24,776 bases of DNA from a virus: positions 1-24,776 of IMG/VR virus record IMGVR_UViG_3300010233_000262; one strand, written 5' to 3'. The position numbers and the translations under genes were made by a program. Below, piece by piece: positions 3,019 through 24,776 of the stretch (position 1 is its first letter; each line of letters opens with the position of its first letter). The notes below the pieces were generated by a model, which saw only the letters and a list, made by a program, of their open reading frames with translations, made no database searches and was not told the origin of the DNA.

Positions 3019-3297
3019 TTATTTAGCAGGCGCATCTTTCATGGCATCGTACAGGCCGAACGAAGTAACACCCAGCGCGAGGCCGAACACTACGACAGTA
3101 AACCAGCCTTGGAAATCAGAGGGGAGGCCGATCTTGCTGAGTTCATAGCCACCGCCCAATAACAGGCCGGTGATTACAGCAAGCAACTTGCCCTTGATCC
3201 CGACGATAAAGCCCTTGATAACCTGTACAAGTCCCAGGATAAGGGCGAGCAGGGGAACACCTGCCACAACTGCATCTCGAAAAATTTGATCGAACAT
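3019..3297 (-). CDS. Putative holin (92 aa, three TM segments)
   Basis: The 92-residue protein has three hydrophobic segments, near residues 10-33 (GVPLLALILGLVQVIKGFIV), 38-52 (AVITGLLLGGG) and 64-82 (WFTVVVFGLALGVTSFG). A short charged C-terminus (KDAPAK) follows. Size, topology and position in a lysis region with an endolysin fit a phage holin, which permeabilises the inner membrane so that the endolysin reaches the wall. RBS AAAGGAGTAAC precedes the ATG. It seems to have its own promoter region (3331-3351). A different small membrane protein cannot be excluded. Confidence 0.7.
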   Translation of the reverse strand: MFDQIFRDAVVAGVPLLALILGLVQVIKGFIVGIKGKLLAVITGLLLGGGYELSKIGLPSDFQGWFTVVVFGLALGVTSFGLYDAMKDAPAK

Positions 3298-3356: not shown

Positions 3357-3929
3357 TTAGATATTTTTCAACACCTCCTTGTATCCTTTTACACGAATTA
3401 GGCCACCGATAGTTACTCCTCTATTCCAAGGGCTATCGAATAGTAGTTTTTTGCCCGTGAAATCAAGAAAGTTCTTATCGTAATCGTCAATCAAAATATC
3501 GGCCTTGATTAATCCTTTATCACCACACTCTACATAATCCTTGATAGAAGGGGAGAAGTGATTGTCTTTCAGCCATTGATATTTTACCCCTAACGTTTCT
3601 GGCGTAGGAGTGGTAACGAATATCACACGTCCACGAATCCTTGCCCACGTCACACAATCTACCGCGCCTTCAAAAACGGGAGTGTTTTGATAGAGATTCG
3701 GAGTGAGGTATTTATAAATATCTTTTCCACAATCCGATACTACGAATTGAGTCATGTCCCAATTCTTAATATCCTCTACCTGTAAATTATCTTTATAATC
3801 TCGGTTATATCGGCGCAACCATTCTAAATGTATATTTGCCAATACGCCATCAATGTCGAAAGCTATTACTAACTCTCTGGCTTGCTTCACTTCCTCAATC
3901 TTCATCAGTTTCAAATCTGGTAGAACCAT
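3357..3929 (-). CDS. HAD-superfamily 5'(3')-deoxyribonucleotidase-like protein (190 aa)
   Basis: HAD motif I is FDIDGVLA at about residues 24-31 (nucleophile and acid Asp). Motif II is FVTTPTP at about 104-110, with a Thr. Motif IV is ADILIDDYDKN at about 144-154 (metal-binding Asp pair), with basic residues between them. This order and the 190-residue size match the NT5C-type 5'-nucleotidases that phages use to remove phosphate from (deoxy)nucleoside monophosphates. It starts 6 bases after the stop of the wHTH gene, with GGAAAG upstream; a second Met at residue 9 is a less likely start. Cytosolic. A general small-molecule phosphatase is the alternative. Confidence 0.75.
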   Translation of the reverse strand: MVLPDLKLMKIEEVKQARELVIAFDIDGVLANIHLEWLRRYNRDYKDNLQVEDIKNWDMTQFVVSDCGKDIYKYLTPNLYQNTPVFEGAVDCVTWARIRGRVIFVTTPTPETLGVKYQWLKDNHFSPSIKDYVECGDKGLIKADILIDDYDKNFLDFTGKKLLFDSPWNRGVTIGGLIRVKGYKEVLKNI

Positions 3930-5394: not shown

Positions 5395-5883
5395 TTAACC
5401 TATTTCCTGCACTTTGTGTTTTTCCATATACAGAAATCCGTTTTTGCTAACCAGATAGAAGTAGGCCGGGAATAGCCAGTTTTTGCCGGGTGTTAACCTG
5501 CCATCGGCGTGAATATTCGTCCACTTCTGCTTGGTGTAGTCGCGGATGATCTGCGAGCCGAGTATGTTCGTCTCCACCATTACCCAATCGTTGTTTACCT
5601 GTTCGCCCTGCACGATATTACCTTGAAAGGTGAGTAGCTGCGTGGTGGGCCAATATTGCTGATTTACCAATCCGCCCTCGTGTGCGGTGAGGTAGTTGAA
5701 GGATGTGCGCGAGTTGATTTGCCTATCCTTTGTTTGCCAGTATGAATTGAGCTTGATTGCGTCGGCTGTGCCAGCTTTCATAACAGGATACAGGCGCGTC
5801 GAGGCTGGCAGCATGGCGTGGCCGTATAGATTGCGTACCTTGCCATCGAATTCTAGGTCGGTGAGTAGGCGGTATAGGGTCAT
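5395..5883 (-). CDS. Hypothetical protein following the endolysin (162 aa)
   Basis: Its ATG overlaps the endolysin stop (ATGA), which implies co-translation. The 162-residue protein is beta-rich and aromatic, with NNDWVMVETNILGSQIIRDY near residues 97-116 and GKNWLFPAYFYLVSKNGF near 133-150. These SH3-like strand patterns would suit a cell-wall-binding domain supplied as a separate polypeptide, but that is inference. No signal peptide or membrane segment. Confidence 0.6.
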   Translation of the reverse strand: MTLYRLLTDLEFDGKVRNLYGHAMLPASTRLYPVMKAGTADAIKLNSYWQTKDRQINSRTSFNYLTAHEGGLVNQQYWPTTQLLTFQGNIVQGEQVNNDWVMVETNILGSQIIRDYTKQKWTNIHADGRLTPGKNWLFPAYFYLVSKNGFLYMEKHKVQEIG

Positions 5884-6641
5884 TTGTGGGCAGCCTCCCA
5901 GCCGCGTAAATACGAAAAGTACGATAGCTGCACCTTGTCCGGCTCCACCTCGAACGCCGCGTCCGCCGCCGATACTATCGGGAGCGGGTTGTCAGACAAT
6001 GGCTTGAAAAACGCTTTGTATTCCGCGTCCGTTCCCTGCCACACATTCACGTCGGGGCCCTCGGAAACTTGCCATATTTTTGCCTCAGTCCATGCGCCGT
6101 ACATCGTGGGCTTGCTGATAAACCGGTTGTACTGAGCTGTCCAAAGCGGGGCCTGTGCGAACCAGCGGGCAGAAGCGGCAGGCACGTTCAGCATCTTCCA
6201 GAAGCCTGGAGCGGTATATATGCCCGGCAAATTCTGATTGAAGAAACTGGCTTTGGTATCCTGAATTCGCACCATCAAATCATAAATATCATCATAGCCT
6301 GAGTAGGGAAGCGTCCAGTAAATGCGATCCTTCATGGTTGTAATGGGCTTCTCACAATCCACCCACATTCCCAATTCACCGAAGTCAAGATTTGTCCACT
6401 TCTTCAGCGCTTCAAATTCAAGGCTTGACTTATGCCGGGCATCTTTCAGCCAGTACCAGCCGCGTTGCAAGCCAGCTTTCTTCGCATCCGCCCACCATGT
6501 AGGCTTGACGCGTGGCACGTCCGGCCATTCGCCTTGCCCGGCCTTGAAGATAACCCCGGAATATCCCTCGAGGGCTATTTTGTCAAAACTGAAATGTATC
6601 TCGTCGTTGCCTGAATACAGGTCAATTAGTTTGATTGTCAT
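5880..6641 (-). CDS. Endolysin, glycoside hydrolase family 25 lysozyme (253 aa)
   Basis: It begins with LIDLYSGN (catalytic-barrel Asp near residue 7), then VIFKAGQG (about 30-37), GWYWL (about 61-65) and LGMWVDCEKP (about 90-99), whose D-x-E holds the expected catalytic acid. PGIYTAPGFW (about 139-148), QAPLWTAQY and KIWQVSEGPDVNVWQG (about 189-204) follow. This order fits the GH25 TIM barrel, which cleaves the MurNAc-GlcNAc bond of peptidoglycan. The C-terminus (about 215-253) adds a short Ala/Glu-rich tail with no clear binding domain. No signal peptide, so export would need the holin. The ribosome site is weak (GGGGC). Confidence 0.88.
   Translation of the reverse strand: MTIKLIDLYSGNDEIHFSFDKIALEGYSGVIFKAGQGEWPDVPRVKPTWWADAKKAGLQRGWYWLKDARHKSSLEFEALKKWTNLDFGELGMWVDCEKPITTMKDRIYWTLPYSGYDDIYDLMVRIQDTKASFFNQNLPGIYTAPGFWKMLNVPAASARWFAQAPLWTAQYNRFISKPTMYGAWTEAKIWQVSEGPDVNVWQGTDAEYKAFFKPLSDNPLPIVSAADAAFEVEPDKVQLSYFSYLRGWEAAHK
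5969..5981. promoter_or_regulatory. CCGA-N5-TCGG near-palindrome, copy 6 (perfect 6-bp arms)
   Basis: CCGATACTATCGG lies inside the endolysin gene. With its flank GGAGCGG it matches copy 2 at 18 of 19 positions. Confidence 0.35.
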
Positions 6642-6711
6642 GCCCCAATTATACTACCTGCAACCCTTTTATAGTTTTGGCGTATACTAATCAAGTAGAA
6701 AGAAGGTTGTC
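6642..6711. promoter_or_regulatory. Divergent intergenic region between endolysin and the plus-strand gene
   Basis: This 70-bp gap separates divergent genes. On the minus strand TATAAT lies close (about 9 bases) to the endolysin ATG. On the plus strand TATACT at 6682-6687 lies about 25 bases before the ATG at 6712. Neither has a convincing -35, so both are tentative. Confidence 0.35.
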
Positions 6712-7248
6712 ATGTGTAAAAGGCTTTTTGTGTACATTGTTCTGGTTACAGTTATTTTTGCCCATCTGGACTTCGATAAAATCCATCAAAGTTATTTACA
6801 ATATGGACATTTCCCAGACAAGAGCGTTGATTTGTGGTGGCCCAAGTGGTCGGCCATGCGCTACAATCTGGCTTTGTTTTTATGCCCTCCGTGTGGGGCA
6901 CTGGCTGAACATTATTACTTCGTGCTATTTGAAATCGAAGCAGGCACAGACGAACAAAACGATTTGCTTCTCAGTCATATCCCACCCAATTCTTATGAGG
7001 GTGTTTTATCGCCTCATGGTTTCTGGTGGGGACAAGGCGGAGAGAATAATTCTAATCCATGGAAACGAGTTAGTTTACTCTCATGGTATTTATATTGGTT
7101 GCCGTATACAATCATCTGGTGGATCATAATAGGCGACTTATTTTACCTTCGCGTCCCTTGGTGGGTTAGTATGATGATGGAACAAAGTAAAGTTGTGACC
7201 AGCGGAAAATATAGTCGGCAGATGAGGCGTTTTTTCCATTTACCTTGA
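6712..7248 (+). CDS. Putative membrane protein on the opposite strand (178 aa, moron-like)
   Basis: This gene runs against all neighbours. AGAAGG precedes the ATG at a suitable distance. Hydrophobic segments lie near residues 4-19 (LFVYIVLVTVIFAHL), 52-75 (around LFLCPPCGALAEHYYFVLF) and 118-142 (WYLYWLPYTIIWWIIIGDLF), and the C-terminus is basic. A CPPC pair lies near residues 58-61. The last 83 bases overlap the 3' end of the fibre gene on the other strand. Single-gene, inverted, membrane-protein units between phage structural and lysis genes are often morons (superinfection exclusion or host alteration). That role is inference. Confidence 0.6.
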   Translation: MCKRLFVYIVLVTVIFAHLDFDKIHQSYLQYGHFPDKSVDLWWPKWSAMRYNLALFLCPPCGALAEHYYFVLFEIEAGTDEQNDLLLSHIPPNSYEGVLSPHGFWWGQGGENNSNPWKRVSLLSWYLYWLPYTIIWWIIIGDLFYLRVPWWVSMMMEQSKVVTSGKYSRQMRRFFHLP

Positions 7249-8923
7249 TAAGCAGAAAATGATAACCACTCGTTAAAGCTGTGACAGTAAGGCTTTTCTG
7301 GGTATAAGCGTTCGCGGCCGCGTACCAATCCTGTGCTGTAGTTTGCACCACACCGTCAAAGTAATAATCCAATTTTCCGAAGTTGGCCCCTACACCACCG
7401 TCTACATATAGTGTGTATGTCCCGGCCTCCAACACAACGCCAGCATAATACTCATCCCCATCTGCCGCCTGTGCGGCTGTTAAGTTATATATCATCGCCG
7501 TAGCATAGGACGAGTTATTGGCTACTGTTGGGGTATTGCCGGTGTTATTGAGAAGTTGCAAACCTTGTATCAAGTCTGTTCGCGGCCAAATTGGTCGGGT
7601 TCCAGTACCGTTAGAAGTCGGAATTAATGCTCCTGATGCTATTGTGGCATCACTAGAGTTATAAGTGGCGGTAGTTGTGGAATTGTCAGCAATTGTTGTA
7701 AGCAAATGATAAGCAGTGGCATCTGATTGGGTTGCCCCAGCAGCAGTAACATATACCTTTCTAGATGTTGTACCCCATTTTCCTAAAGGTATTGCAGATA
7801 GGGCAACCGTCTTGGCTGATGATGCTATCACCACTGCTGTAGATTGTGTAACGTCCGCATCTGTTTCGCCGATAGGATCGACAAAAGTAACAATTGCATA
7901 ATGCGTACCCACATCTACATTACCTGCGCCGCCTGGCGTGGAAGTCAATTTATCTTTTGCTTCTTCCACCCGTAAAACATGGGATTCACCGACGAGAACT
8001 TGACCCTCTAAAAGAGAGCCTGCTTTAATGGAACCCAATAATGGAATTGCATCCTCAGATCCATTAGTTACATCTGTCATCTTCCAACCGAAAAACCCAA
8101 TATTATCATTATTGCCAGAACCATCTTGTGAATAAGCCCCCATAAATGGCCCTGAGCCGGTAGCGGCGGTTCCGGTTATTTTATTGACTAAATTAAAGAA
8201 AGTATTTCCAACATTGGTTGCTGTTGTATTGGTATCTATTTCAAACTTTTGGGCACCCGCCGTTGTTAAACTCCCAGCCGTTAAATCTAGTTGAGCTACT
8301 CCTTTTGTATCTAGATGGAAAATTGCCCTTGTTGTTGCCGTGCTATCATTTGCGAGTAAAAGAACTTCTCCTTGTTTCCCGGATTCTTTTGCCTGTCCAG
8401 TTATCTCTATACCAGCCAAAGAACCTGCTATATAAAACGAATCAATGGAACCAACTAACGTACTGTCGTCGTCTGTTTTCCAAAGTAGATAAGCAGTAGC
8501 AGGATAACTCCCTGCCGTCAACGTAATACCTAATACATCGAGTATTCCTTTTCCTGCTGCCCAAATAAACTTACCCGCTGTATTAAACCCAGCTTGTAGC
8601 ACTCCTAACGCCACTGCGCCAACATTGAACGTACCAACAGAACCGAAATTCTCTCCTAAAGCAGACATAAATGAACCGGTAAAACCTGTGTCTGTAGGCT
8701 CTATGGTTGTGGTTTGCGGAGCAATGAATCGTCCTGCAATTTGATCCCCCAGATTGTTGGTGATTTGATCTACTGCGGCAATTTTCGATATACCGGCAGG
8801 AAATAAGCCGTTGACGAGTTCAGGGGTATTCTCGGAACGCGAAAAGTAACCCACCAACTCCTGCATTTCGTTGGTGGATAAGTCCTCTTTTCTTGCAATC
8901 TTTAATATAATGTCAGCTATCAT
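7166..8923 (-). CDS. Putative tail fibre / receptor-binding protein (585 aa)
   Basis: Residues 1-70 are a charged helical N-terminus (IARKEDLSTNEMQELVGYF) and may attach to the virion. Residues about 70-330 are low-complexity, Gly/Thr/Ser/Ala-rich beta repeats typical of fibres. Residues about 338-440 look like a fibronectin-III/Ig-like domain (HYAIVTFVDPIGETDADV, then TTSRKVYVTAAGAT). Residues about 490-585 look like a jelly-roll or carbohydrate-binding domain (AGTYTLYVDGG, then GYHFLLIKVNGKNASSADY). It follows the nuclease-like gene with an ATGA overlap and precedes the lysis genes, so it may define host range. No lyase motif was identified. Confidence 0.65.
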   Translation of the reverse strand: MIADIILKIARKEDLSTNEMQELVGYFSRSENTPELVNGLFPAGISKIAAVDQITNNLGDQIAGRFIAPQTTTIEPTDTGFTGSFMSALGENFGSVGTFNVGAVALGVLQAGFNTAGKFIWAAGKGILDVLGITLTAGSYPATAYLLWKTDDDSTLVGSIDSFYIAGSLAGIEITGQAKESGKQGEVLLLANDSTATTRAIFHLDTKGVAQLDLTAGSLTTAGAQKFEIDTNTTATNVGNTFFNLVNKITGTAATGSGPFMGAYSQDGSGNNDNIGFFGWKMTDVTNGSEDAIPLLGSIKAGSLLEGQVLVGESHVLRVEEAKDKLTSTPGGAGNVDVGTHYAIVTFVDPIGETDADVTQSTAVVIASSAKTVALSAIPLGKWGTTSRKVYVTAAGATQSDATAYHLLTTIADNSTTTATYNSSDATIASGALIPTSNGTGTRPIWPRTDLIQGLQLLNNTGNTPTVANNSSYATAMIYNLTAAQAADGDEYYAGVVLEAGTYTLYVDGGVGANFGKLDYYFDGVVQTTAQDWYAAANAYTQKSLTVTALTSGYHFLLIKVNGKNASSADYIFRWSQLYFVPSSY

Positions 8924-13146: not shown

Positions 13147-13725
13147 TTAGTATGCAAAGTCGCCAATGTGCTTTAATTCTACAGTTGGATCGCACCACAC
13201 ACTATATCCTGCTTTTTGTGCCTGCTCGCAAAACCACATATCCTCGCCAGTAATGTTCGCACCATCTTCGTCGTGTTCGTAAAAGAACCATGGTTTGTCT
13301 ATCTTATCGAACACCTGCATGTCAATTAGCAAACAACCAGTTGCCACTGCGTGACACTTGAAAATATGTTTTGGCAACGCTCCCTCAAAACGTTCGCCCT
13401 TCTTTATCTTGACGGTGGATACCACCGGAACAGTACGTTCATTGTAGTGCGCTCCGACGATATGTTTCCCATGACTAGCCAACTTTTCAAGCGGGTTGCC
13501 TCGCCACATCATGTCTGCATCCACAAACCAGATATGGGACGATCCTGCTTTTTGTGCTTCCAACACACAATCCCTGCGGGCCACATGAACGTAAGTATGG
13601 ATTGGGTAGCTTACGTTCACCGGAATGGTTGTCTGGGCCAAAACATCAAGGAGTGAAACCATCGTAAAAGTCTTAATCGAACCCATGTTAGGAATTGCAA
13701 TTGTCACAGATTTTAGGCTACTCAT
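13147..13725 (-). CDS. Glycosyltransferase, GT-A / family 2-like (192 aa)
   Basis: The start is set at 13725, an ATG overlapping the end of the preceding gene. A GT-A fold is indicated by VTIAIPNMG (about residues 7-15), HVARRDCVLEAQKAG (about 48-62), SHIWFVDADMMW (about 63-74, with the DxD-type metal site VDAD), GCLLIDMQVF (about 130-139) and GEDMWFCEQAQKAGYSVWCDPTVELKHIG (about 159-187, with the catalytic ED). It would transfer a sugar from a nucleotide-sugar, with metal. It lies amid structural genes, so virion or host-surface glycosylation is likely. Substrate unknown. Confidence 0.82.
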   Translation of the reverse strand: MSSLKSVTIAIPNMGSIKTFTMVSLLDVLAQTTIPVNVSYPIHTYVHVARRDCVLEAQKAGSSHIWFVDADMMWRGNPLEKLASHGKHIVGAHYNERTVPVVSTVKIKKGERFEGALPKHIFKCHAVATGCLLIDMQVFDKIDKPWFFYEHDEDGANITGEDMWFCEQAQKAGYSVWCDPTVELKHIGDFAY

Positions 13726-14215
13726 CGAATTCTTTCTTGAACTCAAATCCAAGTAAACGAATACCGATTTCGCGCTTGTATCTTGGGTTGATCGTATCCC
13801 AATACCACAGTACCCAACTCAGTCGCCAGGATAAAAGGAAGTTCTTAACTTTATCTATCTTGGGAAGCGCAATCGGATTATTCAGCGGTTTGTCCGTTCT
13901 GCGCTTCTCGAAATCATCCCAGGCACTTGAAAACGAACTGGATGCGCCGAACTTGTAGTTGTGTAGGGTTTTCAAAACTACTCCTTTGTCGGTATCGAGT
14001 ACGTCCCAACTTTGGCTGTCATACGCCTTGGTGAGTTGCTCATCCTGAAAAGAAAACGCATCATGTTTGTGTGACTCGATGGCCTTGACGATCTTTTCGT
14101 CAGAGGTATTGAATACTCCATTGCCGCCAAAATTGACATGGCCTTCCTCGGTATCAATCCCGAACTGCTGCGCTTCCTTGGTTCGCGCATGGATCGACCA
14201 CCACTTCTTAGGCAT
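13718..14215 (-). CDS. Hypothetical protein (165 aa)
   Basis: Begins MPKKWWSIHARTKEAQQFGI and has HVNFGGNGVFNTSDEKIVKAIESH near residues 26-49. It is followed by an acidic helical region and an aromatic, basic C-terminus (WRLSWVLWYWDTINPRYKREI, about 129-149). The C-terminal WWYW-rich segment may be membrane-associated or an aromatic packing face. Its start overlaps the 68-aa stop and its end overlaps the glycosyltransferase start, so it is part of the tightly packed operon. The GGNGVFNTSDE motif reads like a small phage structural protein. Function unassigned. Confidence 0.6.
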   Translation of the reverse strand: MPKKWWSIHARTKEAQQFGIDTEEGHVNFGGNGVFNTSDEKIVKAIESHKHDAFSFQDEQLTKAYDSQSWDVLDTDKGVVLKTLHNYKFGASSSFSSAWDDFEKRRTDKPLNNPIALPKIDKVKNFLLSWRLSWVLWYWDTINPRYKREIGIRLLGFEFKKEFDE

Positions 14216-14414: not shown

Positions 14415-14830
14415 AATGCGTTCGGGTTTCTGAGGATCTGTGCCTCGTCCAGCATATCACCCTTGCTAGCCTTGAGCCTTTTTAATTGTTCAAGGTCAGG
14501 TTTTATGTCAGCAGCTGGTACAGACGCACCATCTGACCAATATGACTTTTCCACTGTTTCGATAAGCTCCTTGCCGCTTACGAAAATAGTGATGGCGCGC
14601 CCCTCGACCTGCGCCTGCGCGATCTGCTTGGCCTGTTTCACTGATCCGTTGGTTGCCCGGAAACAGAGATAATCGGCTTGGTGATCGCCTTGGTGCCCAG
14701 CGGGTAACTCACACTTCAAATCTTCCAGTTCCCCATCAACATTGTTATGGTGCTTGTTAATGTGGCCGCAAATAACAATATTTGGTTCTTTTTGTTCAAC
14801 TTCTTGTTCTAACAAAGTTTCTTCTGACAT
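14411..14830 (-). CDS. Hypothetical protein with putative zinc-binding motif (139 aa)
   Basis: The N-terminus (about residues 19-58) contains ICGH, KCELPAGHQGDH and YLCFR. A C-x-L-P-x-GH-x-G-x-H pattern is a zinc-binding style I recall in small phage proteins. The remainder is a helical, Glu/Lys-rich segment with LEQLKRLKASKGDMLDEAQILRN at the end. GAAAGG lies before the ATG, which is formed as TAATG with the upstream DUF115-like gene. No catalytic motif. Confidence 0.6.
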   Translation of the reverse strand: MSEETLLEQEVEQKEPNIVICGHINKHHNNVDGELEDLKCELPAGHQGDHQADYLCFRATNGSVKQAKQIAQAQVEGRAITIFVSGKELIETVEKSYWSDGASVPAADIKPDLEQLKRLKASKGDMLDEAQILRNPNAL

Positions 14831-15435
14831 TATAAAATCCTTTCTATATCAACGCGAGGATAAGTCTCCAACTGCCCACCTACCGTCGCGTTGAAAATCG
14901 GTACCGGACAACTCATTCGTGATACTTCGTGCAGGTATATCTCTGTCTCGTTTCTCACTCTCCAATCTGCATAATGCGGATAATTGCTATCGTAATGATC
15001 GTCTTGCCCCTTGAATAAATCGCACCCAACGAGATAAATCTCTGTGGCTCCATTCATAACTGCCAATTGTAGGACTGGGTACATACTCCCGAAAGCTGTA
15101 CAAATTGTTGGTAGGTGCCAGCTCTGTACCCGTTTGTCGAGGTGATCTGCGGGATACGAATGGTGTCTTTCCTTTCGGTTGTCGCAATGTGCTATCCAAG
15201 TAATGTTATCTCCACTAAAATATTCTTTGAAGCCATCCCACAAAAACACCTTCTCACAATCCAGGTTCTTTTTTATCGCCTCTTTCCAATCGGTGTCGTT
15301 CTCGTTTACATCTTGACAGAAGTAATTGGTAGGCTTGATTGGTGGGCGGTTTATTCCCCAAGTAATCTCATCTTTCAAAAGATGAAGCGGGGTGTTTCTT
15401 ATTGATGCGCCAGTACCAAGTATCCAAACTCTCAT
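14830..15435 (-). CDS. DUF115/MptE-like Rossmann-type protein, paralogue A (201 aa)
   Basis: The start is placed at the ATG at 15435 (MRVWILGTGASI), which overlaps the stop of the 42-aa gene (ATGA). This matches the N-terminus of its paralogue. The G-x-G-A-S loop near residues 7-11 is the nucleotide-binding-like element. Further shared blocks are LPTICTAFGS (about 106-115), IYLVGCDL (about 130-137) and FNATVGGQLETYPRV (about 180-194). The family is often linked to glycan or pterin chemistry, and members near glycosyltransferases are common. Activity is not shown here. Confidence 0.65.
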   Translation of the reverse strand: MRVWILGTGASIRNTPLHLLKDEITWGINRPPIKPTNYFCQDVNENDTDWKEAIKKNLDCEKVFLWDGFKEYFSGDNITWIAHCDNRKERHHSYPADHLDKRVQSWHLPTICTAFGSMYPVLQLAVMNGATEIYLVGCDLFKGQDDHYDSNYPHYADWRVRNETEIYLHEVSRMSCPVPIFNATVGGQLETYPRVDIERIL

Positions 15436-15560
15436 ATCATCAGGATTGCCACAATAATCCCACAAACGCCTCCAATGATATTAACCCATCGGGGAAGCCC
15501 TGCCCCACAAAGCGAAAGACCTGTAATGATGTAGAAGATAATTAGTAACCATTTTTCCAT
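15432..15560 (-). CDS. Small membrane protein (42 aa)
   Basis: A 42-residue ORF with excellent GGAGG six bases before the ATG; the stop overlaps the next ATG (ATGA). It has two hydrophobic segments separated by a short LPRW turn: about residues 4-20 (WLLIIFYIITGLSL) and 27-42 (NIIGGVCGIIVAILMI). It is a two-TM hairpin protein; its role is unknown. The spacing argues that it is part of the DUF115 operon rather than a chance ORF. Confidence 0.65.
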   Translation of the reverse strand: MEKWLLIIFYIITGLSLCGAGLPRWVNIIGGVCGIIVAILMI

Positions 15561-15593: not shown

Positions 15594-15881
15594 TCATGCT
15601 GTCCGTTTCCAAACATATACCGTGAAATATGGCGGAAGGATGGAGTGGTCAGAGTGAGCGCCTGGTTGAGTAACCTGATGAGCATTCACCGCTCCACCTG
15701 TGTGCGATTGCGCGGCGTGTTGGTCGGGTTGTGTAACTGCTCCAGCCGCGTGAGTATGTTGGGGGTTGGCAAGGTCTATCTTACTTTCGGCAATAGCGGC
15801 AGTAGCCGATATGTCCTCGTCAGAAATATAATTGACGTGTTTGCTGCTCCACCAATGTTGAGACACATGGAAAATGGGCAT
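15594..15881 (-). CDS. Histidine-rich fibre/collar-like protein (95 aa)
   Basis: The start at 15881 is TAATG-coupled to the DUF115-like paralogue. Residues about 18-35 (YISDEDISATAAIAESKIDL) match a linker often found in phage structural proteins. Residues about 38-78 are His/Gln/Ala/Thr-rich with QHTH and SDHS and repeated V-T-Q-P-x-x-H units. The end is hydrophobic-aromatic (PYFTVYVWKR). The H-x-H pattern recalls metal-binding trimeric tail fibre tips. It could be a small decoration or tail protein; the length is short for a fibre. Confidence 0.55.
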   Translation of the reverse strand: MPIFHVSQHWWSSKHVNYISDEDISATAAIAESKIDLANPQHTHAAGAVTQPDQHAAQSHTGGAVNAHQVTQPGAHSDHSILPPYFTVYVWKRTA

Positions 15882-16480
15882 TATAGACTTTCGTACTCCA
15901 CTCTTTCGTATACTTCGAGGTTTCCACCAATGGTAGCGTTGTAAATGGGCCATCCAGACCTTGCCGCAATGATATGAGCTTCTAGTGCGTCCATTTGGGC
16001 GTATCTGTTTTCCTGTTCTTTACCGTGTCTATAACTTTCCGAGAAGTGACTCATATCACCATCCATATCGCAGCCCACAAGATATATCGGACTGTATTCT
16101 TTCAACATGGCTATTTGTATTGCTACGTTCACACTCGACCCAAATGTACAAAGGATAGGAAGGTGGAGTAAGTGAGGGCAATCCTTGTCGTTATAGTGTC
16201 TTTTGTAGTGAGCGCATGACCTAATTCTTCCTTCTTTTATTCCGAAATGGTCATTCACCCACATCTCACAACCAAGCTCCTTATGAACATCCATGCTCTC
16301 CTGCCAATCTTCGGGGCCGAGAGTTCCTGCTTCCTCAGCCCTGACGTATATCTTTGTGCGCCAGTCTGTGTATGGGTATATCAGGTGGATATTGTTACAA
16401 GACAGTGTTACTTCATTATTCAGTTTTGAAAGTTCTGTATGTTTTAGGCTTGCGCCGCTTCCAATCACAAAGGCTCGCAA
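15881..16480 (-). CDS. DUF115/MptE-like Rossmann-type protein, paralogue B (199 aa)
   Basis: A TTG at 16480 is used as start with AGAGGG before it; the N-terminus is then MRAFVIGSGASL, aligned with paralogue A. Shared blocks: the glycine loop GSGASL (about 7-12), LPILCTFGSSVN (about 108-119), IYLVGCDMDGDMSHF (about 131-145) and YNATIGGNLEVYERVEYES (about 179-197). An aspartate-bearing GCD and conserved His suggest metal or substrate binding. Its start lies 16 bases inside the end of the HNH gene. Glycan-related role inferred from neighbours. Confidence 0.65.
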   Translation of the reverse strand: MRAFVIGSGASLKHTELSKLNNEVTLSCNNIHLIYPYTDWRTKIYVRAEEAGTLGPEDWQESMDVHKELGCEMWVNDHFGIKEGRIRSCAHYKRHYNDKDCPHLLHLPILCTFGSSVNVAIQIAMLKEYSPIYLVGCDMDGDMSHFSESYRHGKEQENRYAQMDALEAHIIAARSGWPIYNATIGGNLEVYERVEYESL

Positions 16481-16971
16481 GATGCCCTCTTCAAATATTC
16501 ATATGCCGAAAACAACAACTCATCTTTATCTTGGAAATTTCCAATTCCTATATTGCAATTGGAACACAAAAGACCTCGGATTTTTCCTGTTGCGTGATCG
16601 TGATCTACAGACATCGCCTTAGATTGTTCATCTTGATCTATTTTACAAATAGCGCACTTGCCTTCCTGTTTTTCTAGTAAATCAAAATACTCCGACGGTT
16701 CCATCCCGTATCTAATTTTCAGCCACATCTTTCTGCCTTTATTAGCCTCCAAGCGTCGCTGTCCATTTTTCTTCCAATCTCTATCGTGATATTCCCTTAC
16801 AATTTCTGGGTGTTCTTTTCTCCGAACTGCGCTATTTTTTCTGCCAAGTTCGTTTTCGCACAGTTTACACCATGCTTTTAACCCATTCTTGCTTCTTCCT
16901 CGGTAGAACTCTGAAAACGACTTTGTTTTGTTGCAGCGAGGACATTTCTTTTCTGTTACAATGTTTTGCAT
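16465..16971 (-). CDS. HNH / recombination endonuclease VII-type endonuclease (168 aa)
   Basis: Two zinc knuckles lie N-terminally: KCPRCNK (about 9-15) and WCKLCEN (about 34-40). The C-terminal half has GKCAICKID (about 104-112), the catalytic VDHDHATGKIRGLLCSNCN (about 122-140) and a helical tail. This is the endonuclease VII-type HNH (beta-beta-alpha-metal) layout, known in homing endonucleases and resolvases. GGAGG precedes the ATG in a hairpin (see below). It overlaps the next gene's start by 16 bases. It is low in GC and sits between structural genes, consistent with a free-standing homing endonuclease. Confidence 0.85.
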   Translation of the reverse strand: MQNIVTEKKCPRCNKTKSFSEFYRGRSKNGLKAWCKLCENELGRKNSAVRRKEHPEIVREYHDRDWKKNGQRRLEANKGRKMWLKIRYGMEPSEYFDLLEKQEGKCAICKIDQDEQSKAMSVDHDHATGKIRGLLCSNCNIGIGNFQDKDELLFSAYEYLKRASCEPL

Positions 16972-19933: not shown

Positions 19934-20122
19934 TTATTTATTTTGGGGGACGACCTCCAAATCTCTAAATTCACCGAACCCCTCAGATTTGGCAATAGCC
20001 TTAGAGCCTACTTGATACGCCTTCCAAACCTGCTCCCATAATTCTTTCCAGTGTTCGTTCTGGGCTTCAAGTACAGCCACTCGGTTTTTCAACTGCTCTA
20101 TTTCCACGGCTGGTATTTCCAT
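19934..20122 (-). CDS. Small coiled-coil protein (62 aa)
   Basis: A 62-residue protein, largely one coiled coil (VEIEQLKNRVAVLEAQNEHWKELWEQVWKAY, residues 6-36) followed by a charged tail. The ATG is formed by TAATG with the stop of the giant protein. Its role is unknown; a helper of the large virion protein or scaffold is possible. It ends before the attenuator-like region. Confidence 0.6.
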   Translation of the reverse strand: MEIPAVEIEQLKNRVAVLEAQNEHWKELWEQVWKAYQVGSKAIAKSEGFGEFRDLEVVPQNK

Positions 20123-23100
20123 TATTGAATACTCATCAGCACATCACGGATAAGATCATCGCGCCCATTATAGCCTAAACGCTGGGCATCGTAATCCAGC
20201 TTCTTGTTTGCGGAATATGGCAATTCCTTGCCATTCCCAAAGTCGTAGATCAATTGTGTCATGGAATCTCCCAGCACACCTTTCCATTGGTCGGCAGTAA
20301 GTTGTGGTTTGGGTTGTGCAAAATTAGCAAGCCCTGTCTGTGCAGGATTTTCAGGTTTGTTTCCAGTGAGGCTTAATGGAACATCTTGGAGCAGTGAGCC
20401 AAAGCGGGCGGTCTGCCTGAGGTTATCTGCTTGCAGTTCATCCTTTTTATTCCAATATGCACTTAGATTGTACTGACTTCTCAACTCATGTTTGCGCTCA
20501 TCAGTTGTAGAAAGGTCGGAATATTCACGGGCGGCGTTTACAATATCTGCGCCAAATTGCTTTTCCAACGTATCGTACATCTGCGCGTTGTAATATCGTT
20601 CCAATGTGTTCAGGCCACCGTAATATTTCAACAAATCAGGCGTATTCCTGATAATGGAAGTTTGCAGGTCAAGAGCATCGGCCACATCTGGATTTGCCTC
20701 GATATATAACTTGGCTTTAGCTCTATCGTCAAATCCATAGTATTGCGAGATTTTATCGGTAATATCAGCGCCGTATTGTTTCTTTATTTCATCCTGCATG
20801 GATGAATATAACCGACGAGCATTAGCCCATTCGGTACGCGTAGTATTGGCTGGAATGGCAACCATGGCTCCCAAATCAACCATGGCATTATTAAACTTTA
20901 GCTTTTCAGTTGCGCTCATGTTCCCGTATTTTCCACCAGAATCATAGAACTTCTGTGCGGTTGCAGGGTCGATCCCTACAATGCCAAATAATTCTTTTGT
21001 CATGCCTGGGGGGATACGCGAGATAACATTATAGGCATAGGCGCTGTCTCGATCATCGCCTGCCCTGCGTGACAATAATACGGTATCCATGAACGGGTAA
21101 CGCTCACGCAGCTGGTCAAATCCCTGTTTGTACTGTTCGTCAGATAATTGCCCGCCGGTGTGAAGTTGCTGCATCCTGAAATAGTCGGCGTAGAAATTAT
21201 CTATTTGAACATCGGAGGCTGTACGTGCCTTAAATCCAACGCCTAAAAAGAACGATGCGATCTGTCCGGGCGCGCGTAAGGCGGTTGCGTTCCTGTACGC
21301 CTCGTCCCATATTGGGCCGTTTTGCGTATGCCCGGCTTCGATAACCTGTTGTTCGGTGTATTTCCCGTCGGTAACAAGTTGCGCCAACGCACGCCCCACG
21401 CGGCCCCTTTCGTACTTGTCCATCGCGTTAAATGCACTATTTTGTCCATCTGATGCAATTAAAGGGTTTCCGCTAAACGCCATCACAGCCGGGTCAAGCT
21501 CAATGGGGGTTTTGCCAGCCAATGCCATGAGTGATTTTAGGGTGGCAGTTTGTGGAATTATCCTACCAGCCCAACTGGACGCGGCCTGCTCCTCACCCTT
21601 CAAGGCGAAGCCCGTCGCCATTGCAATTTGAAAAGGTGCCCAAACAGATGGGCCGAATTTGCCAAGGTCATCAATGGTGGACGAAAACCATCCAGCGCGT
21701 TTGTCGGGATCATTAAAGTCTGTGCCTGTCAATCCGTAGAGAGGCCATACAGCCGCTTCCAGATTGATATACATTGGATTACCCTGATTCAATCCCCACA
21801 TGAATTGAGGCAGTTCAACATTGTATTTCCACCATTCAGGCGCATCCTTGTGAAGGCTAGCCATCTGGTCTTTGAATTTTGCATACGCTGAAATAAGCTG
21901 TGGGTCACTAGCCAGTCTTTGCATCCACGTATTATAAGAGCGCGAGTACCAGAATTGGTACGGGTACACGTATGACATGGCATGATCTAAATGCGTCGTT
22001 TCGCCATAGGGGAGCAATGCAAAATCGCGCCAATACTCTGCGTACTTCTGCGCTATTAGTCTGCCCTCGGCCATCCTGTCACCGGCGGTTTTTGAGAAGT
22101 CGGCCATCTTTGCGGCCATCTCAGGATTGAAAGTTTCAGATGCTTTCACGCCCCAATTGCCCAGCATGTTCTTTTCCATATTGGCAAGGCTATCCAAAGT
22201 GCCTGCCGCTGTCTCAGCGTGAAAACGAGATGGCACAGGCATGGCCCCATCAACGTACGGGGGAGGTAGTTGCTGCTTTTGAACCTTGGGCGTAATTCCT
22301 TTTTCTGCTGCCCGCTTTTCAAGTACAGAACGCAGTTGTTCCGGTGTTAATTGTCCATTGCCTATTGTCTTGTTCAATTCCGGGTCGTATTTTTCAACAG
22401 CGTTATATATTGCGTTCCCGTCTGTGGAAAAACCATATTCTTTTGCCACTGAAGCTAAAGTCTCTTTCGGAGTAATAAACGCGTGCCCACCTTCCCATTC
22501 AGCGGTGCGATACTTTTGTAGTTCCTCCATTTTGGCGCGAGCTTCCTGCATCAAGTCTGTAACCCCATACTTGGATGCGGCCTTTTCACTCAATTCAAAA
22601 GTGCGGTCAAAGTAGGTTGTCCACATCTGCGGCAGTTTCTCGTTCTTGACGTACTGCCACAACGCGTTCTTAAATTCCTTGGCAGTGGTGCCGGTAAACT
22701 TTGCATCAGAACCGATCTTAGCCCATAGCTTTTGAAAGTCTGCCCCGGCCTTATCTGCCTCGCGCGTCAATTGCCACGCTGTCTCAGTAACACCGCGTGT
22801 TTGCGAACGGATGATATTGTCCGGTGTGCGCTTGGCTAAATCACCAAGCAGGGCCGTAACATCCTGGTCACCAGTCCTTTTGGCAATATCAGTCAAAGCC
22901 TCAATGTACTTATCGTGCGTTTGATACGAGGCCTCGATGATCTGGTCAAGTTGTGACAAGTCGCCTGACGACAAGTTGCTACCTGCGCGTTCTGCGATCT
23001 GGGAAAGCTCCTCGGCCATGGGGCTGTTTTTACTGACACCGGCAGTATCATCCACGATACTTTCCGCACGCGTCTTTAGTTCGTCACGTAATTTTTTGAA

Positions 23101-24776
23101 AAGATTCGATACATCCTGTTGGGTAGCATCTGGATTTTTGGTTAATGCCTTTATCTCGTCCATCACCCCGGATTTTTCGAGCGTCGTAAGTTGTTCGGGA
23201 GGTACATAGCTTTCGTACATCCTCCACAAGTCCGGGCCACCTGAGTTGTATTGTTTCGAGAATTCAGTAGCAGCCTTTTGCACGTTCCCTAAATTCTCCT
23301 TCACCAATGCCTTGAATCTATTGGCCTGCTGGTTTGAAAAGCCAGCGGCCTTGAATTCATCCAAAGTCGGCAAAGCCTTACCAAAGCTATTTTGCATATC
23401 AAGCGCGTCAAGATAAGACGAGAGATATACGCGTTTAGCCGCTGATCTTTCTGTATTACTCATGATCGTGGAACCATTCGGGAGGCCGAATATCTTCCCC
23501 TCGTTCGCATTGGCCGAGCCGGTTAACGTCTTGAATCCCTCCACCGATGGAGGCAACTGCCCATTAAATAATTCTGTCAGCTTATTAGTAACTGCCTCGT
23601 CTGACCAAAACTTCCCATCCCGATACCAAGCGCGCGGGCCAATATCTATCAAGGTAATTAGATTGTTTTGTAATACGTTGCGTGCTGCTACTCCGTACTG
23701 ATACGAAAAGTAGAAGTTACCCAACGCTTTGTTTATCCAGTTTTTAGGTTTGCTGGCAACATCGTTCAATTCAGATATACGGACAAGTCCGGGACTGGTC
23801 TTTTTCAGTTGGCTATACTGGGCGGCTAATCCTTGTGTCTTTGTAGATACCTTTTTGCCGTTAGTTTCCGCGTCCGTTACAGCCGTGGCCGCGTCCTTCA
23901 TTTCCGATAGTGTCGGGAACTGGTTCTTGGCAGCCTCGTCCATCAAGCCCTTCAGCTTGTTTCCCAACACCTTCCAGTCGCCCTCAGCGCTTTTGATGGT
24001 ATTGAGAAGTTTATCTACGTTTAGTGTGCCATCCTCTGTTTTGAGCAGGTTCCTGAGCGTCGCAGATGTTTCTAAGAACGACTCTCCAAAGTTCGTTTTA
24101 GGTGACGGGAAGTGAGTAAGGGCCGTAACCCCGTCCTTCACTTCTTCTGGATTACTTGATGATAGTTTTATCAAAGCTGTCATCCAGTCATTCACATCGT
24201 CTATTGGTCGTTTAGCTCCGGCGATATTGCCAACGCCCCATGTCAGAACATCACCCATCTCACGGACGACGCGCATCTTATTGCCCTCTGCGTTAAGGGC
24301 AGTGACGTTGTATTGCTGCGGCCTGAATTCCTTGGCTACCCCGTTCGGATGGGTGTATTCCACAACATGATTTACCAAGTCGTCAAGTGCCTTTACTCCT
24401 TGAGCATCCGTGGTTGCACTGGAAAGATTTTGAGCTTTATTCAAAAATTCAGCATCAGCCACAAGCCCGCTGTCACGGATAACGGTTGAGGCTTCATCCA
24501 GTTTACCGATCATCTTTACTGATTTGGAGATATACCCAACAATATTCAACGGGTCAAATATCAATTGCCCGACAAGCTCTGCCCATGGGTTCTGCAATTC
24601 CATGGCGAGTAGTTGTGGATCTTCACCTGCCTGCGCGCGTCTTTTGTATTCCTCCGCAATGGCCGGGGATACAAATTCCGAATAAAGCAGCTTACCTTCG
24701 TTCCAGCCCTGCTTGATAGCATCAGTTTTCTGCTTTAGTGTGCCGGGCGCGTTGAAGAAACGAACGGCATTAATGG
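20122..24776 (-). CDS. Giant helical virion-associated protein, 5' end beyond the window
   Basis: The frame stays open to the window edge (first full codon at 24774), so the first visible Met at 24603 is not shown to be the start; 1550 residues are visible. It is alpha-helical with many Gln/Asn/Lys/Glu segments. A Trp/Tyr-rich segment lies near the codon for PYQFWYSRSYNTWMQRL (about residue 880 counting from 24603), with hydrophobic patches nearby (MYINLEAAVWPLYGLTG). No protease, polymerase or transglycosylase motif is seen. Length and position before the scaffold and capsid genes suggest an internal virion/ejection or large polyvalent phage protein. Not the portal by any visible feature. 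Confidence 0.6.
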   Translation of the reverse strand, partial: INAVRFFNAPGTLKQKTDAIKQGWNEGKLLYSEFVSPAIAEEYKRRAQAGEDPQLLAMELQNPWAELVGQLIFDPLNIVGYISKSVKMIGKLDEASTVIRDSGLVADAEFLNKAQNLSSATTDAQGVKALDDLVNHVVEYTHPNGVAKEFRPQQYNVTALNAEGNKMRVVREMGDVLTWGVGNIAGAKRPIDDVNDWMTALIKLSSSNPEEVKDGVTALTHFPSPKTNFGESFLETSATLRNLLKTEDGTLNVDKLLNTIKSAEGDWKVLGNKLKGLMDEAAKNQFPTLSEMKDAATAVTDAETNGKKVSTKTQGLAAQYSQLKKTSPGLVRISELNDVASKPKNWINKALGNFYFSYQYGVAARNVLQNNLITLIDIGPRAWYRDGKFWSDEAVTNKLTELFNGQLPPSVEGFKTLTGSANANEGKIFGLPNGSTIMSNTERSAAKRVYLSSYLDALDMQNSFGKALPTLDEFKAAGFSNQQANRFKALVKENLGNVQKAATEFSKQYNSGGPDLWRMYESYVPPEQLTTLEKSGVMDEIKALTKNPDATQQDVSNLFKKLRDELKTRAESIVDDTAGVSKNSPMAEELSQIAERAGSNLSSGDLSQLDQIIEASYQTHDKYIEALTDIAKRTGDQDVTALLGDLAKRTPDNIIRSQTRGVTETAWQLTREADKAGADFQKLWAKIGSDAKFTGTTAKEFKNALWQYVKNEKLPQMWTTYFDRTFELSEKAASKYGVTDLMQEARAKMEELQKYRTAEWEGGHAFITPKETLASVAKEYGFSTDGNAIYNAVEKYDPELNKTIGNGQLTPEQLRSVLEKRAAEKGITPKVQKQQLPPPYVDGAMPVPSRFHAETAAGTLDSLANMEKNMLGNWGVKASETFNPEMAAKMADFSKTAGDRMAEGRLIAQKYAEYWRDFALLPYGETTHLDHAMSYVYPYQFWYSRSYNTWMQRLASDPQLISAYAKFKDQMASLHKDAPEWWKYNVELPQFMWGLNQGNPMYINLEAAVWPLYGLTGTDFNDPDKRAGWFSSTIDDLGKFGPSVWAPFQIAMATGFALKGEEQAASSWAGRIIPQTATLKSLMALAGKTPIELDPAVMAFSGNPLIASDGQNSAFNAMDKYERGRVGRALAQLVTDGKYTEQQVIEAGHTQNGPIWDEAYRNATALRAPGQIASFFLGVGFKARTASDVQIDNFYADYFRMQQLHTGGQLSDEQYKQGFDQLRERYPFMDTVLLSRRAGDDRDSAYAYNVISRIPPGMTKELFGIVGIDPATAQKFYDSGGKYGNMSATEKLKFNNAMVDLGAMVAIPANTTRTEWANARRLYSSMQDEIKKQYGADITDKISQYYGFDDRAKAKLYIEANPDVADALDLQTSIIRNTPDLLKYYGGLNTLERYYNAQMYDTLEKQFGADIVNAAREYSDLSTTDERKHELRSQYNLSAYWNKKDELQADNLRQTARFGSLLQDVPLSLTGNKPENPAQTGLANFAQPKPQLTADQWKGVLGDSMTQLIYDFGNGKELPYSANKKLDYDAQRLGYNGRDDLIRDVLMSIQ
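23904..23916. promoter_or_regulatory. CCGA-N5-TCGG near-palindrome, copy 7 (weaker)
   Basis: CCGATAGTGTCGG inside the giant gene. It shares the CCGA/TCGG arms but its inner symmetry is weaker than copies 2, 5 and 6. It may be chance. Confidence 0.2.

What the first reader, a model, noticed from the sequence alone, without database searches (positions are those of the whole stretch)
6712..7248. Inverted membrane-protein gene between fibre and endolysin (moron candidate)
A lone plus-strand gene sits in a long run of minus-strand genes. It has its own ribosome site, three hydrophobic segments and a CPPC pair. It overlaps the fibre's 3' end by 83 bases tail-to-tail, and no terminator is seen. Accessory genes placed so often alter the host surface or exclude other phages.
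Basis: partly seen in the sequence, partly recalled or inferred. Interest (0 to 1): 0.6.

Follow-up and report, generated by a model that had tools for sequence, protein, structure and literature searches.

The report
Backwards membrane-protein gene in a phage
A short-tailed phage known only from an environmental sequence carries one extra gene, read backwards between its fibre and cell-wall-cutting genes; the gene encodes a small membrane protein that no relative has, which fits an optional add-on gene such as one that keeps rival phages out, although that role is not shown.

Summary
An ATG ORF of 178 codons lies at 6712-7248 on the plus strand. It is the only credible plus-strand gene in a run of minus-strand structural and lysis genes from 3019 to 24776, and it overlaps the fibre's 3' end by exactly 83 bases. 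It is unlikely to be chance: 0 of 2000 dinucleotide shuffles give an ORF that long, it has a good ribosome site, and the gap is closed in all minus frames. The membrane call is softer than stated: one strong and two weaker hydrophobic segments. The protein is an orphan; searches of viral, phage, plasmid and bacterial DNA, Pfam, PHROGs, NCBIfam, PADLOC and PDB found nothing. The 33 related records searched lack it. In ten records with a GH25 endolysin, the upstream neighbour is co-directional; one (L014) has fibre, 74-aa gene and endolysin with no inverted gene. So it looks like a lineage-specific insertion at a conserved junction. The closest working analogue is P22 sieA: a lone inverted 164-aa inner-membrane gene tail-to-tail with a late gene. 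SieA's motif and sequence similarity are absent, so it is not a member. Superinfection exclusion is the leading guess (about 0.3), not a demonstrated function.

The parts
6712..7248 (+). ORF178, inverted orphan gene for a small membrane protein (one strong, two weaker hydrophobic segments; CPPC at residues 58-61)
   Evidence: (0 of 2000 shuffles); no homologue
6695..6711 (+). Shine-Dalgarno-like site (AGAAAGAAGG) of ORF178
   Evidence: -7.7 kcal/mol, best 8% of ATGs in the window
6642..6711 (.). 70-base divergent region between endolysin start and ORF178 start; would have to hold the ORF178 promoter. TATACT occurs at 6650 and 6683 (+) and TATAAT at 6653-6648 (-), without convincing -35 boxes
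   Evidence: sequence; one search finds promoter-like sites no more often than in shuffles
7166..7248 (.). 83-base tail-to-tail overlap of ORF178 with the fibre gene, no terminator hairpin detected
7166..8923 (-). Fibre-like tail protein gene (585 aa), last gene of the tail module
   Evidence: position after the adaptor and tail genes shared with relatives; no family match
5880..6641 (-). GH25 endolysin
   Evidence: PF01183 E 2e-8; 60% identical relative

Best explanation
ORF178 is a real, lineage-specific accessory gene inserted, in reverse orientation, at the fibre/endolysin junction of the late operon of a short-tailed phage. It has its own ribosome site and, by its orientation, must have its own promoter. 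Its product is a small inner-membrane protein. The most likely job is to be made early in infection or in a lysogen and to interfere at the cytoplasmic membrane with DNA entry of a second, related phage (superinfection exclusion), working like P22 SieA without being its relative. Shown: the ORF, its non-random length, its ribosome site, its orphan status and its absence from relatives. Inferred: membrane location (hydropathy only), independent promoter, acquisition by insertion. Guess: the exclusion function, about 0.3 on its own. The confidence given is for the accessory membrane-gene reading as a whole.
For: Length far beyond chance, and all minus frames closed in the gap. Good ribosome site. 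Hydrophobic segments at residues 1-19, 55-73 and 122-140. Absent from all 33 related records searched and from the loci, while capsid, adaptor and tail genes are shared (about 23-57% identity). Ten of ten GH25 endolysins in the searched records have a co-directional upstream neighbour; L014 has fibre, 74-aa gene, GH25, same order, no inverted gene. P22 sieA is laid out alike: lone inverted gene 36811-37305, 22 bases from the 3' end of gene 16, 164 aa; it is an inner-membrane protein with three predicted spans, expressed from a putative promoter of its own, that blocks DNA delivery (PMC10883804).
Against: Codon score is at the low end for this genome, and the synonymous-codon test does not discriminate here. 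Only one hydrophobic segment is strong. No promoter stands out. No homologue exists, so selection on the frame cannot be tested. No integrase or repressor was identified in the fragment. No similarity to SieA (E 0.21, 175 of 500 shuffles score as well), and SieA's FxRYPxEAxxFNK motif is missing.
Confidence: 0.65

Rival explanations
1. Accessory membrane protein with another job: host-envelope or metabolic modification (lysogenic conversion), or host takeover, not phage exclusion.
For: Same anatomy evidence. A relative carries a different inverted cargo after its fibre, a block with a D12 adenine methyltransferase (L005 39173-40048), so this end of the tail module can hold varied cargo.
Against: No enzyme domain found in any library.
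Confidence: 0.35
2. Lysis-related membrane protein (second holin, antiholin or spanin-like) that happens to be inverted next to the endolysin.
For: Adjacent to GH25 endolysin; hydrophobic segments.
Against: Opposite strand to the late operon, so not co-expressed with the lysis genes; the window has a holin-family match elsewhere on the minus strand (3019-3297, phrog_1299 holin, E 2.9e-6); related records have nothing alike there.
Confidence: 0.1
3. Not a gene: a chance open frame in a non-coding gap (for example a promoter/leader region of the endolysin operon).
For: Low codon score (0.071 bits/codon), an overlapping 164-aa TTG frame in the same gap, no homologues.
Against: 0 of 2000 shuffles reach 178 aa; good ribosome site exactly at the ATG; a 524-base non-coding gap would be unusual in this tightly packed late region; the rival 164-aa frame has a negative codon score and no clear ribosome site.
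Confidence: 0.12
4. Membrane disulphide or redox protein using the CPPC pair (DsbB- or VKOR-like).
For: CPPC near the start of a hydrophobic segment.
Against: Only three Cys in all, one pair; DsbB needs two pairs (established knowledge); no Pfam match even at E up to 10.
Confidence: 0.04

Closest known systems
Salmonella phage P22 sieA
   Same: Lone gene inverted in the late region, tail-to-tail with a late DNA-ejection gene, similar size (164 vs 178 aa), hydrophobic segments (PMC10883804)
   Different: No sequence similarity beyond shuffles, no FxRYPxEAxxFNK motif, weaker hydrophobicity, and hydrophobic segments spaced differently; different phage lineage
Phage moron elements (e.g. HK97 gp15, DLP4 morons)
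   Same: Extra gene between genes that adjoin, or lie close together, in relatives; absent from relatives; orientation demands separate transcription (definition as in PMC6469090)
   Different: Own promoter and terminator not shown; lysogenic expression unknown; phage not shown to be temperate
Inverted cargo after the fibre of Podoviridae sp. ctptF532 (MW202608.1)
   Same: Same lineage (capsid protein 46% identical), inverted genes directly after the fibre-like gene
   Different: Different genes (adenine methyltransferase and hypotheticals); a longer block

Membership tests
Phage moron | Extra gene at a junction that relatives keep without it | tested here: met
   Absent in 33 related records; upstream neighbour of GH25 co-directional in 10 of 10; L014 gives the direct comparison. 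All are distant relatives; no close one was available
Phage moron | Own promoter and terminator | tested here: inconclusive
   TATACT boxes but no convincing -35; no terminator-like site near either 3' end
Phage moron | Composition unlike neighbours | tested here: inconclusive
   GC 42% against 47% for the window, but the neighbouring fibre is 44%
Phage moron | Expressed in the lysogen | not testable with these tools
   No host, no lysogen, no RNA data; no integrase in the fragment
P22 SieA family | Sequence similarity to SieA | tested here: not met
   BLASTP E 0.21 over 27 residues; local score 32 against shuffle mean 30.4
P22 SieA family | Cytoplasmic motif FxRYPxEAxxFNK | tested here: not met
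   Present in SieA, absent in ORF178 (motif from PMC10883804)
P22 SieA family | Blocks DNA delivery at the inner membrane | not testable with these tools
   Needs a plating and DNA-entry assay
DsbB/VKOR redox membrane proteins | Two cysteine pairs and family profile | tested here: not met
   Three Cys in total; no Pfam match at E up to 10

The most novel reading that the evidence does not exclude
ORF178 is the first seen member of an unrelated family of inner-membrane superinfection-exclusion proteins that occupies, in reverse orientation, an accessory slot after the tail-fibre gene in a large uncultured lineage of short-tailed phages, in parallel with P22 sieA.
Probability: 0.2. Interest if true: 0.5.

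Novelty: new member of a known kind. Interest (0 to 1): 0.27.

Why it matters
If it does exclude other phages, it would show that unrelated phages place membrane exclusion genes in the same kind of slot (inverted, tail-to-tail with a late tail gene), which gives a simple way to find more of them. If not, it is one more orphan accessory gene, and the finding is ordinary.

Tried and rejected
Homology searches for ORF178 in IMG/VR (6), GTDB contigs (21), GenBank phages, PLSDB plasmids, Pfam, PHROGs, NCBIfam, PADLOC, PDB sequences, 33 related records (57) and 398 genomes of one candidate phylum (85): all empty or chance level. The two contig scans used short exact peptide patterns and find close relatives only. 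AlphaFold2 on the single sequence: mean pLDDT 51, pTM 0.28, too poor for a fold search, which was therefore not run. Synonymous-codon test: no power in this genome, since spurious frames score like genes. Sigma-70 promoter and terminator scan: no more hits than in shuffles. SieA homology: tested, not met (77, 78). The endolysin's 60% relative (L002) lies in a phage with different neighbours, so it does not help to date the insertion. The capsid scan of bacterial contigs found a single one (L009, a Pseudomonadota MAG); it may be a phage contig put in the wrong bin, so the host remains unknown.

Full report
What was checked. The window is a 24,776-base virus record. A plus-strand ATG ORF of 178 codons runs from 6712 to 7248; the fibre-like ORF 7166-8923 and the GH25 endolysin 5880-6641 (Pfam PF01183, E 2e-8) are on the minus strand. 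From 3019 to 24776 this is the only credible plus-strand gene; the plus-strand genes at 109-2855 belong to another block, whose end converges with the minus-strand block.

Is it a gene? In 2000 dinucleotide-preserving shuffles of 6642-7300 the longest ORF in any frame averaged 67 aa (sd 19), with a maximum of 174, so none reached 178. The three minus-strand frames hold 7 to 9 stops, so nothing is encoded opposite. Of the six frames this one has the best codon score (0.071 bits per codon), but most genes of the window score about 0.1-0.3, so composition alone would not prove it. A synonymous-codon test had no power in this genome. The ribosome site AGAAAGAAGG gives -7.7 kcal/mol with the anti-Shine-Dalgarno sequence, within the best 8% of all ATGs in the window. 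A competing 164-aa TTG frame in the same gap has no clear ribosome site and a negative codon score. I judge it a real gene with about 0.87 probability.

What does it encode? Hydropathy shows one strong N-terminal segment (1.86 from residue 1), and weaker ones from residue 122 (1.43) and residue 55 (1.24, containing CPPC, Glu and His). So 'three hydrophobic segments' is fair, but three membrane spans are not certain. The protein has 12 Trp in 178 residues. AlphaFold2 on the single sequence was poor (pLDDT 51); its helices (2-18, 37-57, 59-77, 122-163) agree with the segments but carry little weight.

Relatives. No homologue was found in any collection or library. To learn whether the site is conserved I collected the phage's own family. 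The capsid protein (phrog_1357 major head protein, E 3e-17) matches a Manatee Spring podovirus, MW202608.1, at 46%. A four-sequence capsid alignment then brought in 33 IMG/VR loci and one bacterial contig. Many of them share capsid, adaptor and tail genes with the window in the same order. None carries ORF178: 0 of 33 records even at E 10, and only chance-level hits in the loci. Ten searched records, nine of them in this capsid family plus the endolysin's 60% relative G001, have a GH25 endolysin; in all ten the gene before it is co-directional. In L014 the order is fibre, a 74-aa gene, GH25, and a 102-aa membrane-anchored protein, all on one strand: the same junction as in the window, without the inverted gene. 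So ORF178 looks like a lineage-specific insertion at a conserved junction. The ten records are distant, and the exact empty site in a close relative is not available.

How it would work. Its orientation means that late transcription of the fibre/endolysin block cannot express it; it needs a promoter in or near the 70 bases 6642-6711. TATACT occurs twice on the plus strand and TATAAT once on the minus strand, none with a convincing -35. No terminator is visible at the convergent 3' ends. The closest anatomical parallel is P22 sieA: an inverted 164-aa gene 22 bases from the 3' end of gene 16 in the late operon, expressed in lysogens from a putative promoter of its own, an inner-membrane protein with three predicted spans that stops DNA delivery of superinfecting phages (PMC10883804). 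ORF178 shares the layout and size but not the sequence (BLASTP E 0.21; 175 of 500 shuffles score as well) nor the SieA motif. 'Works like SieA' is therefore possible; 'is a SieA' was tested and not met. Three of the fourteen other capsid-family records searched carry an integrase (G014, G032, and G035, the last a weak capsid match); the window does not, but it is a fragment, so a lysogenic role can be neither claimed nor excluded.

Is the slot a hot spot? Two other members carry inverted DNA near the same place: MW202608.1 has a block with a D12 adenine methyltransferase after its fibre, and L024 has an inverted 61-aa ORF with two hydrophobic segments, 17 bases tail-to-tail with a tail gene. 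The second was picked after the fact and its length alone occurs in 77 of 1000 shuffles, so it is suggestive only.

Verdict. Observation confirmed; accessory-gene reading supported; exclusion function an analogy. The kind is known, the protein is new. Interest is moderate to low until a function or a close relative is found.

Noticed in passing
L024:19390-19575 (-): A related phage record has an inverted 61-aa ORF with two hydrophobic segments, overlapping a tail gene's 3' end by 17 bases: a possible second inverted membrane gene in the same lineage.
   Followed up: partly
5880-6660 (-): The endolysin start has no clear ribosome site, and a TATAAT box sits only 6 bases before its ATG, as in leaderless messages.
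   Followed up: no
14830-15465 and 15881-16480 (-): Two proteins between capsid and adaptor genes match phrog_4603 (labelled sialyltransferase) and recur as tandem pairs in several relatives; with a glycosyltransferase-like protein at 13147-13752 they form a sugar-related cassette inside the structural operon.
   Followed up: partly
16465-16971 (-): A recombination endonuclease VII-type gene sits inside the structural block (PF02945, E 8e-25).
   Followed up: no
20122-24774 (-): A protein of at least 1550 aa, cut by the window's end, is shared by many relatives next to the capsid genes, yet matches no Pfam or PHROG family convincingly.
   Followed up: partly
3357-3929 (-): A 5'(3')-deoxyribonucleotidase-like gene (PF06941, E 2.1e-29) lies in the lysis-side block.
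   Followed up: no
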